Below are positions 2,292 to 25,090 of a DNA stretch of 39,792 nt, one piece after another (position 1 is the first letter of the stretch; the number at the start of each line of letters is the position of its first letter). This DNA is from Spirochaetales bacterium (lineage in GTDB: Bacteria; Spirochaetota; Spirochaetia; SZUA-6; JAFGRV01). The stretch is taken from positions 1-39,792 of the forward strand of contig JAFGHO010000090.1 of the NCBI GenBank assembly GCA_016930085.1, read 5' to 3'. The translations under genes and the position numbers were made by a program. The notes under the pieces are model-generated. The model was not told the DNA's origin. It made no database searches and saw nothing but the letters and a program-made list of their open reading frames with translations.

Positions 2292-4316
2292 ATGAAACGA
2301 TATCTCTTTGTGTTGTTTCTTTCGACGGTGTCATTCTTTCTTTTTCCGGGAGGTATTCCGGTCGCCATTATGGATATGGAACCGATCGGGATACTCCCGG
2401 ACAAGGCCCTGACTGTCAGCGAGCTGCTTCGTGTCGAGTTTATCAAGCTTCCGGTATTCAAAGTCGTGGAACGGAAGGATCTGTTGCACGTACTCGGTGA
2501 ACAGGAATTGCAGCTTTCGGGCCTCACGAATGCCGGCGACGCGGTTAAATTCGGCAGGATGCTCAACGTGAAAAAGATATTGCTGGGCAGTCTGGCAAAA
2601 TTCGAGGGCAAATTCGTGCAGTACGTGTTGAATATCAGGATGGTCGATGTGGAAACGGGGTCGGTTGAGATAGCGGAAAGCATGGATATCGCGAATGACG
2701 ATGAAATAAGAAAGACCTGTCATGCGATAGCCGGGAAGGTCGCGGGAACGATCAGCATTGTGGGGGAAGTCGTTTTAATCGAGGGTGATGATGTCTATAT
2801 CAACCTTGGCATCGATGTCGGGCTGCGGGAAGGAGATCATCTTGAGGTATTCGATGTTGAGCTGGTCAAGGATAAACGGGGTAATATCCTGCTGCGTGAA
2901 GAAAAGGATGTCGCGTACCTGAAAATATCCTCCGTTGACAGGGAGGCAAGCAGATGTACGGCCGTCCGGAGAGTGAAAGAGATCGCCAATGGAATGGTCG
3001 TCAGAAAAAGTACAAACCAACTCGAACCGGAAAACGGGCGTGCCGCGAGCATTACCTTCACGTCGATTCCGGAAGGGGCCAAGGCGTATATCAACGGCGA
3101 GTTTGTCGGTATCACGCCCGTTACTATGGAAGATTTCAAACCGGGGATATATTCGGCGGAGATGCGGTATCCCGGTCACCGTTCCTACGCGGGTAAAATA
3201 AGGCTTACCGAAGGCAGGCAGATCACCGTGGAACGGGAACTGGAAAAAATCGTCGAAGTGGAAGATATGCTCGAAGGGGGGAAAATCCCCAGAAAGACGA
3301 CCGATCCGGGTGAGGCGCTTACCTGGGCGCTCATCCCCGGAGGCGGACAATTTTACAACAAATACGAAACAACGGGACTCGGGATAAGCGCCATGACATT
3401 TATGGGATTGGCGGGGGGAGGCCTCTTTCTGTACAATTACCTGAATGAGGTCGATACAAGGGACGCCGGTGAATATGACGAGTTTTATAAATACGTGCTC
3501 GACTATAAAATAAGCGGCAACCTGCTGGACTGCGGAATCATCGCGGGAACGGCATTGGCCGTCTATCTGGTATCGATTCTTGAAAGCGCGCAGTCGGCTT
3601 CTTCCCCGTTCAAATACTACGAATATACAGAGATAAAGTTCGGTGGGCTGGGAGTATATACGAACAGCTCCCAGTATCCGAATACCTTCACCGGAAGCGG
3701 GCCGGAGGTGTACGCGAATCCCGTTCTCGACGAAAAAACGGCCGATATGTCCGGGACTGATCTGGGCGCGTTCATTTCAGCGGGAATTCGAAGCCGTTAT
3801 TTCGATATGTCGTTTGAATTCGGTTTTTCAACGGAACTGAGTCTCATGGGACTTGCCGGACGGCTAAAGCTTCCCGTTTTCACACCCGTGACCGTTTCGG
3901 CGGGCATAGCATATATCAGCAACATGAATGATACCCGGGAAGTCGAGTACACGGAGGAAGATCCGGTTGCCTTTTTGCGTTCAATGGTCGCCCCGGTTGT
4001 CGGCCTGTCATTCGAGATGCCTTCGTTTTTGTTTATTTTCGAGGGGACCCCCTTCGCGTTCGGGGCGGCCGACTTTTTCTATACCACCGACCCGGGGGAG
4101 AGCTGGACAAAGGCGTTGTACCTGCAGTCATTGCTGGGAATGTATCTCTACGGCCGGCTCGATTATTATTTCAGCACGCGAATCGGTGTTTCGATCGAAG
4201 CGCGCTATATCAGTTTTTACGGCATGCTCGATACGGAGGCGAAGGACGCGGGCATTCCGGTTTTTCAGTATCATGATACCATTTTCATCACAATCGGTTC
4301 GATTTTCAGATTCTAG
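2292..4316 (+). CDS. Exported CsgG-like / PEGA / beta-barrel protein
   Basis: The product has 674 residues. A signal peptide (1-20) is followed by a CsgG/FlgO-like domain (about 22-150) with the typical VVERKDLLHVLGEQELQLSG segment and an LLGSL strand. Residues 155-240 form a small beta domain resembling the FlgT C-terminal domain (GIDVGLREGDHLEVF). Residues 252-320 are a PEGA domain (FTSIPEGAKAYINGEFVGITP). Residues 340-430 carry two membrane-type segments beginning ALTWALIPGGGQFYNKYETT, the pattern of small integral proteins often found beside PEGA modules. The last 230 residues have alternating aromatic/hydrophobic strands ending in ITIGSIFRF, as expected of an outer-membrane barrel. It probably sits in the outer membrane or bridges the envelope; PEGA domains are generally thought to bind cell-wall or surface polymers. 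ATG 2292 has AAGGAGA 7 nt upstream. Exact role unknown. Confidence 0.8.
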   Translation: MKRYLFVLFLSTVSFFLFPGGIPVAIMDMEPIGILPDKALTVSELLRVEFIKLPVFKVVERKDLLHVLGEQELQLSGLTNAGDAVKFGRMLNVKKILLGSLAKFEGKFVQYVLNIRMVDVETGSVEIAESMDIANDDEIRKTCHAIAGKVAGTISIVGEVVLIEGDDVYINLGIDVGLREGDHLEVFDVELVKDKRGNILLREEKDVAYLKISSVDREASRCTAVRRVKEIANGMVVRKSTNQLEPENGRAASITFTSIPEGAKAYINGEFVGITPVTMEDFKPGIYSAEMRYPGHRSYAGKIRLTEGRQITVERELEKIVEVEDMLEGGKIPRKTTDPGEALTWALIPGGGQFYNKYETTGLGISAMTFMGLAGGGLFLYNYLNEVDTRDAGEYDEFYKYVLDYKISGNLLDCGIIAGTALAVYLVSILESAQSASSPFKYYEYTEIKFGGLGVYTNSSQYPNTFTGSGPEVYANPVLDEKTADMSGTDLGAFISAGIRSRYFDMSFEFGFSTELSLMGLAGRLKLPVFTPVTVSAGIAYISNMNDTREVEYTEEDPVAFLRSMVAPVVGLSFEMPSFLFIFEGTPFAFGAADFFYTTDPGESWTKALYLQSLLGMYLYGRLDYYFSTRIGVSIEARYISFYGMLDTEAKDAGIPVFQYHDTIFITIGSIFRF

Positions 4317-4704: not shown

Positions 4705-4767
4705 GAGCATTCACAATGATGCAAACGGGAAATTGACAAGGCAATTTAATAAAAAAGGAGTATGATT

Positions 4768-6756
4768 ATGAAAAAGTTGCTATCGGTTTTATGTATTCTG
4801 GTCCTGGGGCCGGCAGTGTTCGCGGTCACAGGCGATGTCAATAACGACGGGACGGTGAACATCGTCGATGCCCTGTTGACCGCACAATATTCGGTGGGTC
4901 TTCCGCTGTCCAATTTCGATGCCGCGGCGGCGGATGTCAATGGCGACGGTGCCGCCAGCATCATCGACAGCTTATTGATCGCCCAGTACTATGTCGGGAT
5001 GATCTCCTCTTTTCCCGCCGATGGAACACCCACGAATCCGCCGTCAACGACCTCCGTCGCACCGGCAACGCCGCTACCGACAGCGGTTGGTACAAGCGCC
5101 CCTGCCACGACATCGCTTCCCGGCGTGACGAATCCCCCGTCTGCAACGGGAGCGCCGTCGGCGACATTGCCTCCGGGTGTGACGAGTGCCCCGGTGATTA
5201 CCTCGGCGCCTTCTTCCGGTGAATCCGGGCTCGAGGCGGGCTACGCCGACGACAATGAAGAGTTCAACAGCTTCCTGAGTTTTCTTGATGAATACAGCAG
5301 TGTAAAACATTACGAACTCAAAATATATGAAAGAATCATTTTCCATATACAGGATATAAACGGCGAATCCCTGTCCAATGCCGGGATCGAAGTATTTAAT
5401 GAACTGGAAGAACTCATCTGTGAAGGGACCTCGTACGCGGACGGGACCTTCATGTTTTTCCCCGCCGAATACGGTGATGACGAAAATTATATCGTGAAAG
5501 TGACCTTCCGGTTTCAGACAAAGGAAATGAATGTCGAGCGAGACGGTGTACGGAATATCGACGTGGTTTTTGATTTCGACAGGCCGGCCTACGACAATGT
5601 TCCGCTCGATATGCTTTTTGTCCTCGATACCACGGGCAGTATGGGAGAAGAGATCAACCAGCTCAAAACCACCATCGAGCTTATCAACCAGCATCTCAGC
5701 ACCCTCCCCTCGAATCCGCTTGTCCGTTTCGGTATGGTGCTTTTCAGAGACCGGGATGATGCCCAAACGACCTATTTGACGCAGGTCGTCCCCCTGACCG
5801 ATAACCTCGATCTGTTTCAGACCGAATTGAGTCAGGTGACAGCCAGGGGCGGCGGCGACAAGCAGGAGAATCTCGAACAGGCCCTCGAAGAAGCGATGCA
5901 TGAGATCGACTGGAATGAAGACGGGATCAGGCTGGGGTGGATCATCACCGACGCCGGCCCCAAGCTGTATGAAGATGAAACCTACCGATACGTGGATGCG
6001 GCGCGGGACGCACATGAGGCGGGCATCAAGTTTTTCAGCGTCGGGGCGGGGGGGCTCGAACTCGGCGGCGAATACGTCCTCCGCCAGATCTCCCAGTACA
6101 CCTGCGGCAAGTTTATCTTTCTCACCTATGGTGAAACGGGGCCGAGTGAAGGCGGCGTGCCCGGCAGCGTCAGCCATCACACGGGAGACGACTTCGAAAC
6201 CGATACTCTCGAATCGATTCTCATACATTTCGCGGAAGAGGAATTGAGCCACCTCACCGACGAGTCCGAGGAAAAGGAGGAAGCATATTTTGAGGCGGTC
6301 AAAATCGATGAAGAAACAAAGGAAGAAACACTCGCCAAATTGTTCGATATGGCGGTCGATCAGCTGATCGATTACTCGAGCCTTGCCATCGAAGAAGGAA
6401 CGGTGATTCCCTGTCTTCCGGTCGTGGGCGTACACGGCGAATACGGAGTGGAAGAGGAATATTTCACCGGGCTGCTTGAAGGTTCACTCGATGAAAAAGA
6501 CACCGTCACCATGATTGAAGATGATTTGGAGACGATTCTCGACAGCCTGGATCTCGAGATGACGGATTATGCGGAAGACCTCGATGCCGTTGCTGAAGTG
6601 GGCGAGTATCTCGAAACCGAAGTAATGATCTGTTCCCAACTGCAAAGCGTCGAAGACCATTACGAAATGGTCATGGGCCTTTTCCGTGTTGAAACTGCGG
6701 AAATGCTGGGCCGGGTATTGCTTAAAATCGATCCGGAACTGGGTCCGGCATATTAA
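4768..6756 (+). CDS. Secreted protein: dockerin, Pro/Thr linker, vWA domain
   Basis: The product has 662 residues. ATG 4768 is preferred over ATG 4762 because AAGGAG (4755-4760) is then 7 nt away. A signal peptide (about 1-19, ending VFA) is followed immediately by a type I dockerin-like pair of calcium loops, DVNNDGTVNIVD and DVNGDGAASIID, each followed by an AQY helix. A low-complexity Pro/Thr/Ser/Ala linker covers about residues 80-150. Next comes a beta domain of carboxypeptidase-regulatory type (about 175-275), then a von Willebrand A domain starting near 280 with the MIDAS motif DTTGS (Asp287). The C-terminal 200 residues are very acidic and helical. vWA domains bind ligands through a metal, and dockerins bind cohesins, but no cohesin is visible here. 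The domain calls are firm; the partner is unknown. Confidence 0.85.
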   Translation: MKKLLSVLCILVLGPAVFAVTGDVNNDGTVNIVDALLTAQYSVGLPLSNFDAAAADVNGDGAASIIDSLLIAQYYVGMISSFPADGTPTNPPSTTSVAPATPLPTAVGTSAPATTSLPGVTNPPSATGAPSATLPPGVTSAPVITSAPSSGESGLEAGYADDNEEFNSFLSFLDEYSSVKHYELKIYERIIFHIQDINGESLSNAGIEVFNELEELICEGTSYADGTFMFFPAEYGDDENYIVKVTFRFQTKEMNVERDGVRNIDVVFDFDRPAYDNVPLDMLFVLDTTGSMGEEINQLKTTIELINQHLSTLPSNPLVRFGMVLFRDRDDAQTTYLTQVVPLTDNLDLFQTELSQVTARGGGDKQENLEQALEEAMHEIDWNEDGIRLGWIITDAGPKLYEDETYRYVDAARDAHEAGIKFFSVGAGGLELGGEYVLRQISQYTCGKFIFLTYGETGPSEGGVPGSVSHHTGDDFETDTLESILIHFAEEELSHLTDESEEKEEAYFEAVKIDEETKEETLAKLFDMAVDQLIDYSSLAIEEGTVIPCLPVVGVHGEYGVEEEYFTGLLEGSLDEKDTVTMIEDDLETILDSLDLEMTDYAEDLDAVAEVGEYLETEVMICSQLQSVEDHYEMVMGLFRVETAEMLGRVLLKIDPELGPAY

Positions 6757-6784
6757 GGGTCGATTGTAAAAAGAAACATATCAG

Positions 6785-6811
6785 GCGCGTCTTTCGGGGC
6801 GCGCTTTTTTT
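6785..6811 (+). terminator. Rho-independent terminator after the dockerin-vWA gene
   Basis: A 7-bp GC-rich stem (GCGCGTC with GGCGCGC, one G-T pair) with a 6-nt loop is followed directly by TTTTTTT. It begins 28 bp after the stop codon and separates this gene from the next promoter. Confidence 0.8.
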
Positions 6812-6829: not shown

Positions 6830-6858
6830 TTGAAAAACGATGTCTGAAATAATATAAT
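6830..6858 (+). promoter_or_regulatory. Strong sigma-70-type promoter for the tube-like protein
   Basis: TTGAAA (6830-6835) and TATAAT (6853-6858) are 17 bp apart, which is close to consensus. The predicted transcript start is only about 14 nt before the ATG at 6879. Confidence 0.7.
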
Positions 6859-6878
6859 AATAAATACAGGGTGTCGTT

Positions 6879-7412
6879 ATGAAACAAATAGTATTTCCTA
6901 TAATCGTCATTATGACGATGGTGGCATATTGTCTTGCATGTGAAAGGCAATGTCCGGATATATGCTCAGGCGATATGCTGTCCGTTGGGGCAATCGGCTA
7001 TTTCATGCCGGAAAACGACATCATTATACCGGTTAAATTTGACCCCCGCAGTTTCAGGATCGAACGAAAAAACAACTATGCGGCATACCGCTCCGCTGAT
7101 TCATATGATATTCATCAAGCGTTTAACGGACCGGAGACGACCGTCGTAAAAGTATGTCTGTACTTTGAAAGTACGGATGCCGCGGAGGATATCAGGTTCC
7201 GGACAAAACAGATTTCAGATTTGATGACAATCGGAGAATCCCTCAATGTACCCCCGCTTCTTGTTTTTACATGGGGAAGAATCTCCTATCATGTTGTGAT
7301 TGAAAGTATATCGGAGCACTACCGGGATATTCATGCAAACGGTCTTCCGTCAAAAGCAACTCTGAAAATAGAGTTCAGGGAATACCGGCCTTTTTCCAGC
7401 GATATGGAATAG
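6879..7412 (+). CDS. Exported orphan contractile-injection tube/baseplate-like protein
   Basis: The product has 177 residues. Residues 48-171 read like the N-terminal domain of contractile injection system tube/LysM-baseplate proteins (the CIS_tube family; compare Afp7/PVC7-like proteins). The sequence shows KFDPRSFRIERKN near the start, a long strand KVCLYFESTD, the helix IRFRTKQISDLM, then NVPPLLVFTWG, a VVIESISEHY strand, and LPSKATLKIEFREY at the end. The usual downstream LysM domain is absent. Residues 1-20 are a hydrophobic signal sequence, followed by Cys21, Cys25 and Cys29. Cys21 could be a lipidation site in a relaxed lipobox (CLAC). The Shine-Dalgarno is weak (AGGGTG). An in-frame ATG at 6975 would give a cytoplasmic form. 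No sheath, tube, spike or ATPase gene lies in the window, so the protein is an orphan. The family call is from memory of conserved motifs; export is inferred from the N-terminus. Confidence 0.65.
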   Translation: MKQIVFPIIVIMTMVAYCLACERQCPDICSGDMLSVGAIGYFMPENDIIIPVKFDPRSFRIERKNNYAAYRSADSYDIHQAFNGPETTVVKVCLYFESTDAAEDIRFRTKQISDLMTIGESLNVPPLLVFTWGRISYHVVIESISEHYRDIHANGLPSKATLKIEFREYRPFSSDME

Positions 7413-24595: not shown

Positions 24596-25090
24596 ATGCA
24601 AGATAATCTGATTCCTGATGGGACGCTTATAAATTCCATTATCGGAGAAGGAACACGGTTCAAAGGGGAGTTTGATCTCAACGGCCTTTTGCGCATAGAC
24701 GGGGATTTCTCCGGTGTCATCAGAACTAAGGGGAAAGTACTCGTCGGCAGCAATGGAAGGGTCGAATGTACCATGTACGCCGGAACCGTCGTTATCGGCG
24801 GTATGGTCCGCGGTGATATTTATTCGACGGAAAAGGTGATTATCCTTTCGACGGGGATGGTCATCGGAAATATTCAGACACCGCGTCTCATCGTCGAGGA
24901 CGGCGTTATTTTTAACGGAAATTGTAAAATTGTAGAGCACGCGACAGTCAGGGAGTCGGAAAACGAGGGAAGCGGGGCTGTATTGCAGGATAACCATCGG
25001 AATAATGAAGATAATAATAACAAATCACCATATCAGAAGAACGATGCGGGTTACCCCCCTCCCCTTGATGAAAAAGTTATTTCGTTGTAA
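24596..25090 (+). CDS. Bactofilin (first copy)
   Basis: Bactofilins self-assemble into cytoskeletal filaments without nucleotide and often localise peptidoglycan enzymes. The 164 residues hold the beta-helix core at about 10-110: IIGEGTRFKGEF, LLRIDGDFSGVI, VLVGSNGRVECTM, VVIGGMVRGDI, VIILSTGMVIGNI and LIVEDGVIFNGNC, with the rung periodicity usual for the family. The tail (about 120-164) is disordered and rich in Asn, Glu and Pro. It begins 12 bp after the M23 peptidase gene, and the preceding ribosome site is weak (AGGGTG). Together they form the common M23-bactofilin cell-shape pair, and a second bactofilin is encoded at 33072-33485. Confidence 0.94.
   Translation: MQDNLIPDGTLINSIIGEGTRFKGEFDLNGLLRIDGDFSGVIRTKGKVLVGSNGRVECTMYAGTVVIGGMVRGDIYSTEKVIILSTGMVIGNIQTPRLIVEDGVIFNGNCKIVEHATVRESENEGSGAVLQDNHRNNEDNNNKSPYQKNDAGYPPPLDEKVISL

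What the first reader, a model, noticed from the sequence alone, without database searches (positions are those of the whole stretch)
6879..7412. Exported, orphan copy of a contractile-injection tube/baseplate domain
Residues 48-171 carry the motif series of the CIS_tube / LysM-baseplate N-terminal domain (KFDPRSFRIERKN, PPLLVFTWG, SKATLKIEFREY). The protein begins with a hydrophobic signal sequence and three Cys after it, it lacks the LysM part, and no sheath, tube, spike or ATPase gene is near. Classical members are cytoplasmic parts of contractile machines. An exported, possibly lipid-anchored stand-alone form would be a new use of the fold: an envelope docking ring, a remnant, or an immunity or decoy factor.
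Basis: partly seen in the sequence, partly recalled or inferred. Interest (0 to 1): 0.75.

Follow-up and report, generated by a model that had tools for sequence, protein, structure and literature searches.

The report
Exported lone injection-tube ring domain
A spirochaete gene encodes, alone and behind what looks like an export signal, the ring-forming domain that normally sits inside a phage-tail-like injection machine; it is a real but so far one-of-a-kind sequence whose role is unknown.

Summary
Confirmed: ORF 6879-7412 (177 aa) carries a CIS_tube domain (PF19266, 50.3 bits, cut-off 27, E 2.8e-13). Its alignment-based AlphaFold model matches the Cis7/Afp7/Pvc7 tube initiator of solved contractile injection systems best (VIA Z 11-13). 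There is no LysM part, no LysM remnant downstream and no CIS gene in the 39.8 kb window. Of 70 related loci (some duplicates), 67 sit beside recognisable CIS genes, and none of those read begins with a signal-like segment. The same genome holds one ordinary eCIS cluster on another contig, with its own LysM-type Cis7 (123 bits).

Export is well supported but unproven. A terminator, an 11/12 promoter and a ribosome site serve ATG 6879; shuffles give a comparable signal segment in under 0.1%. However, every homologue starts at the position of in-frame ATG 6975, no orthologue exists to test the extension, and the classical lipobox is not met. The protein keeps 19 of 40 family-conserved residues, on a very long branch.

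Best reading: an exported, tethered or periplasmic descendant of the Cis7 ring domain, no longer a machine part; its exact job is inference. Rivals: internal start, or decaying remnant. New variant of a known kind, known from one genome.

The parts
6783..6806 (+). terminator-like hairpin with T run that closes the upstream VWA/dockerin gene
   Evidence: consensus scan, 10 pairs, 6 GC pairs
6830..6858 (+). promoter-like site TTGAAA-17-TATAAT, 11 of 12 matches
   Evidence: consensus scan; not proof of activity
6867..6873 (+). ribosome-binding-like CAGGGTG, five bases before ATG 6879
   Evidence: duplex energy -6.4 kcal/mol against -3.3 for ATG 6975; the same motif precedes the window gene at 24596
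6879..7412 (+). stand-alone CIS_tube gene, 177 aa
   Evidence: PF19266 50.3 bits, cut-off 27
6879..6938 (+). residues 1-20: hydrophobic signal-like or anchor segment
   Evidence: mean Kyte-Doolittle 2.53 over 15 residues; comparable in 0.085% of shuffles
6939..6974 (+). residues 21-32: Cys-rich linker CERQCPDICSGD, absent from all homologues
   Evidence: alignment and Cys positions
6975..7394 (+). residues 33-172: complete tube-initiator barrel domain, beginning at the canonical start of the family
   Evidence: alignment from Met33, model pLDDT 82.9 and fold matches

Best explanation
The gene makes an exported, single-domain descendant of the Cis7/Afp7 tube-initiator protein of contractile injection systems. 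Shown by computation: a complete CIS_tube barrel domain, no LysM coupling module, its own promoter-like and ribosome sites, a signal-like N-terminus, and no CIS genes around it. Inferred: the N-terminus sends the protein through the Sec pathway and, cut after Ala20 or left as an anchor, places the barrel on the periplasmic or outer side of the envelope behind a short Cys-rich linker. Also inferred: having lost the LysM part that ties Cis7 to the baseplate and about half of the family-conserved residues, it no longer takes part in building a machine and has been taken over for an envelope role, most likely as a small tethered ring or binding adaptor.
For: CIS_tube match well over cut-off; tube-initiator fold, VIA Z 13.2 to 11 against Cis7/Afp7/Pvc7 chains; domain complete from Met33, residues 1-32 an addition; no LysM remnant; terminator, promoter and ribosome site point to ATG 6879; signal-like segment rare in shuffles; no CIS neighbour here against 67 of 70 related loci with one; intact frame and retained core despite about 27% identity and a branch of 3.41, which argues against a recent dead copy.
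Against: No orthologue with the same N-terminus in any collection searched, so selection on the signal cannot be tested. All homologues start at the equivalent of Met33. Classical lipobox not met. The model depends on relatives' alignment; the single-sequence fold is uninformative. Export, ring formation and the envelope role are inferred.
Confidence: 0.5

Rival explanations
1. Internal start: the real protein begins at ATG 6975 (145 aa). It is a cytoplasmic, LysM-less Cis7 paralogue that may still join the tube of the cell's own eCIS on contig C99 as an alternative or accessory initiator ring.
For: All homologues start exactly there; LysM-less CIS_tube proteins occur beside CIS genes, e.g. 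Deinococcus L026, 190 aa; an eCIS cluster is present.
Against: Weaker ribosome site at 6975 and a leader of about 110 bases; promoter and ribosome site fit 6879; the signal-like extension is unlikely by chance; half of the conserved residues are lost.
Confidence: 0.22
2. Remnant: a horizontally acquired or old duplicate of a Cis7 gene that lost its LysM half, landed behind a signal-like sequence and has no present function.
For: Found in one genome only; longest branch, 19 of 40 conserved residues kept; lower GC3 than most neighbours (0.46 against about 0.6, although the next gene has 0.39).
Against: Frame intact, fold core kept, clean promoter, ribosome site and stop; no LysM debris downstream.
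Confidence: 0.18
3. Self-protection or decoy: the exported ring domain binds the tube or hub of the cell's own or a neighbour's injection particles at the envelope and blocks or positions them.
For: The genome encodes its own eCIS and the domain is the tube-hub interface module of that machine (PMC8894136; PMC10966104), apparently placed outside the cytoplasm.
Against: Conserved stretches that may serve contacts are changed (QxFTxF to EHYRDI); the gene is unlinked to the CIS cluster; same-family genomes with eCIS lack it; no PADLOC match.
Confidence: 0.1

Closest known systems
Cis7 / Afp7 / Pvc7 tube initiator of eCIS (CIS_tube PF19266 + LysM)
   Same: The same barrel domain from its first strand to its last, same core residues, best fold matches
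   Different: No LysM part, no CIS genes nearby, an added signal-like N-terminus and Cys linker, half of the conserved residues changed
LysM-less CIS_tube proteins inside CIS clusters (e.g. Deinococcus psychrotolerans WP_124874208.1)
   Same: Single CIS_tube domain without a listed LysM part
   Different: Encoded next to a VgrG-related gene and without a signal-like N-terminus
CisA, membrane adaptor of the Streptomyces CIS (PMC12237407)
   Same: A membrane protein outside the particle linked to CIS function
   Different: CisA is bitopic with a long cytoplasmic N-terminus, belongs to the CIS gene cluster, and is not described there as a tube-domain protein
Phage tail tube initiators and P2 GpU-like proteins
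   Same: Shared fold (8kea, 6u5b, 9vzk) and a sub-threshold GpU match
   Different: Virion parts encoded in tail gene clusters; no export signal reported

Membership tests
CIS_tube domain family (PF19266) | Profile score above the curated cut-off | tested here: met
   50.3 bits against 27
CIS_tube domain family (PF19266) | Tube-initiator barrel fold | tested here: met
   Alignment-based model, Z 13.2 to 9gtp_M, 12.7 to 6j0n_b; a model without relatives was uninformative
Cis7/Afp7/Pvc7 tube initiator | C-terminal LysM (or alpha/beta) part that ties the tube to the baseplate | tested here: not met
   Protein ends after the last barrel strand; no LysM remnant downstream
Cis7/Afp7/Pvc7 tube initiator | Encoded in a CIS gene cluster | tested here: not met
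   No CIS gene in the window; the genome's cluster is on contig C99
Cis7/Afp7/Pvc7 tube initiator | Cytoplasmic, no export signal | tested here: inconclusive
   Signal-like N-terminus with matching promoter and ribosome site, but homologues start at Met33
Cis7/Afp7/Pvc7 tube initiator | Assembles as a hexameric ring on the spike and starts the tube | not testable with these tools
   Needs purified protein or complex prediction
Bacterial lipoprotein | Lipobox (PROSITE PS00013-style pattern) | tested here: not met
   YCLAC fails at -4 and -3, while window genes 236 and 37230 pass; spirochaete-specific SpLip was not available
Self-immunity or anti-phage defence protein | Match to a known defence family | tested here: not met
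   No PADLOC model at E up to 1

The most novel reading that the evidence does not exclude
An injection-machine tube-ring domain has been taken out of the machine, given an export signal and put to work in the cell envelope, for example as a membrane-tethered ring that blocks or docks injection tubes.
Probability: 0.3. Interest if true: 0.65.

Novelty: new variant of a known kind. Interest (0 to 1): 0.42.

Why it matters
Cis7 is among the most constant parts of contractile injection systems (638 of 639 clusters in one survey, PMC12210884), where it works inside the particle. A version that leaves the cytoplasm would show that this ring domain can be reused on its own, and could point to how producers tolerate or position their own injection particles. 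With one sequence and no known function, it is a lead rather than a result.

Tried and rejected
Search for orthologues with the same N-terminus: single-protein and alignment scans of genome contigs, viral contigs, plasmids and phages, spirochaete samples, two other phyla. Only LysM forms, in-cluster forms or fused forms came back; none of those read has a signal-like N-terminus (a few loci were not caught by the reading script). Part of a CIS island cut by a contig end: rejected, the gene lies 6.9 kb inside a contig of housekeeping genes, and the genome's only other CIS_tube gene and its two tube genes lie on C99. Assembly contaminant: unlikely, carB is 75-84% identical to same-family genomes and the VWA neighbour 68% to one. 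Recent truncated copy of the genome's own Cis7: not supported (27% identity), though grouping with the spirochaete clade is not rejected (p-AU 0.246). Synteny: VWA and carB loci in relatives lack the gene and share no order with the window. Part of the VWA operon: unlikely, a terminator lies between. First MAFFT alignments with the full N-terminus misaligned the start codons. Single-sequence fold was uninformative. NCBIfam, PADLOC and PDB sequence searches: nothing; PHROGs gave only weak sub-significant matches. Rfam: nothing in the window.

Full report
Observation. The ORF at 6879-7412 encodes 177 residues. Pfam CIS_tube (PF19266) matches residues 50-171 at 50.3 bits against a cut-off of 27, E 2.8e-13; Phage P2 GpU is just below its own cut-off. 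NCBIfam, PADLOC and PDB sequence searches give nothing, and PHROGs only weak tail-protein hits.

Domain extent. Aligned from Met33, the protein runs almost collinearly with its homologues from their very first residue, with a one-residue gap and a two-residue insertion. In the alignment-based AlphaFold model of residues 33-177 (pLDDT 82.9, pTM 0.72) the first strand starts at full-length residue 35. The domain is therefore complete and residues 1-32 are an addition. The best solved matches are Cis7-type tube initiators: 9gtp_M Z 13.2 (rmsd 2.8, 140 residues), 6j0n_b 12.7, 9qgl_7A 12.4, 6rao_G 12.3 (Foldseek). The model leans on relatives: folded alone, the protein gives pLDDT 34.9 and says nothing reliable.

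What is missing. Published structures describe the tube initiator as a tube-compatible barrel plus a second part; [quoted passage not shown] compare PMC10966104). Here the protein stops just after the last strand, and the 240 bases downstream hold no LysM remnant. The window has no other CIS gene.

The genome. The window is contig C90 of a 5.36-Mb spirochaete genome. A profile search finds one other CIS_tube gene, on C99 (123 bits, LysM form). Around it lie two gp19-type tube genes, a sheath, a GPD-like spike, an AAA ATPase and an eCIS_core protein: an ordinary eCIS cluster. gp19-type tube genes occur only there.

Which start codon? For 6879: an upstream terminator at 6783-6806, a promoter-like TTGAAA-17-TATAAT ending at 6858, a CAGGGTG ribosome site five bases before the ATG (-6.4 kcal/mol, against -3.3 for 6975), and a 15-residue segment of mean hydropathy 2.53 behind Met-Lys-Gln. 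In 20,000 dinucleotide shuffles of the upstream region 14.8% had an in-frame ATG extension, 0.085% a comparable signal-like one and 0.01% one with a lipobox-like Cys. The thresholds were set with the observed values in view, so these figures are indicative. For 6975: every homologue starts there. On balance I favour 6879 at about 75%. The classical lipobox pattern is not met (YCLAC), so lipidation is open; signal-peptidase cleavage after Ala20 or an uncleaved anchor would serve equally.

Uniqueness. No protein with this N-terminus was found in about 435 spirochaete genomes, in GTDB contig scans, IMG/VR, plasmids, phages, or samples of two other phyla. Scans with exact peptide patterns can miss relatives of middling identity, and metagenomes could not be scanned. 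Of 70 CIS_tube loci tested, 67 have a recognisable CIS neighbour (some loci are duplicates, and the three without one are short or cut by a contig end). None of the N-termini read looks like a signal sequence.

Evolution. The protein keeps 19 of 40 family-conserved positions: the structural core (F54, P56, L94, D104, R106, P125, P126, F130, W132, G133, G155, P157, A160, F166 among them) stays, while N55, D97, Q146, F148, T149, F151, R159 and others (family letters) change, many conservatively. Its branch is the longest in the tree (3.41 changes per site) and its place is unsure; descent from the spirochaete Cis7 clade is neither shown nor rejected (p-AU 0.246). So much change with an intact frame argues for constraint over most of its history, though part of the divergence may predate the loss of LysM. 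Synteny gives no help.

Mechanism. Shown by computation: domain, architecture, isolation, regulatory signals. Inferred: export, tethering by the N-terminus, ring formation. Because the LysM coupling part is gone and the protein would sit outside the cytoplasm where particles are built, I think it is no longer a machine part. The likeliest use is an envelope ring or adaptor; decoy or self-protection against injection tubes is possible given the genome's own eCIS, but the changed residues speak mildly against binding the standard partners.

Verdict. It is filed as a member of the CIS_tube domain family, not as a Cis7 tube initiator, whose LysM and cluster-location features it fails.

Noticed in passing
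window 4762-6756 (+); G000:C104 about 60685-64512; relatives G002-G004: Cohesin/dockerin system in a spirochaete family: the VWA protein next door carries a type I dockerin; same-family genomes G002-G004 have on the order of a hundred or more dockerin-like matches each; cohesins over cut-off occur in G000 (5, four of them in one 1724-residue open frame), G002 (7), G003 (12) and G004 (19) but not G001.
   Followed up: partly
L089/L090 (G436:C902): Two enlarged CIS_tube proteins (open frames of 324 and 407 residues) side by side with long N-terminal additions, in a Chloroflexota genome that also has a LysM-type Cis7.
   Followed up: no
L011 4646-8332 (-): A 1228-aa protein without any Pfam match lies in the eCIS cluster beside the eCIS_core protein; it could be a cargo or an accessory part.
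   Followed up: no
window 2292-4316 (+): A protein combining CsgG-like, FlgT_C-like (weak) and PEGA matches, two genes upstream of the finding.
   Followed up: no
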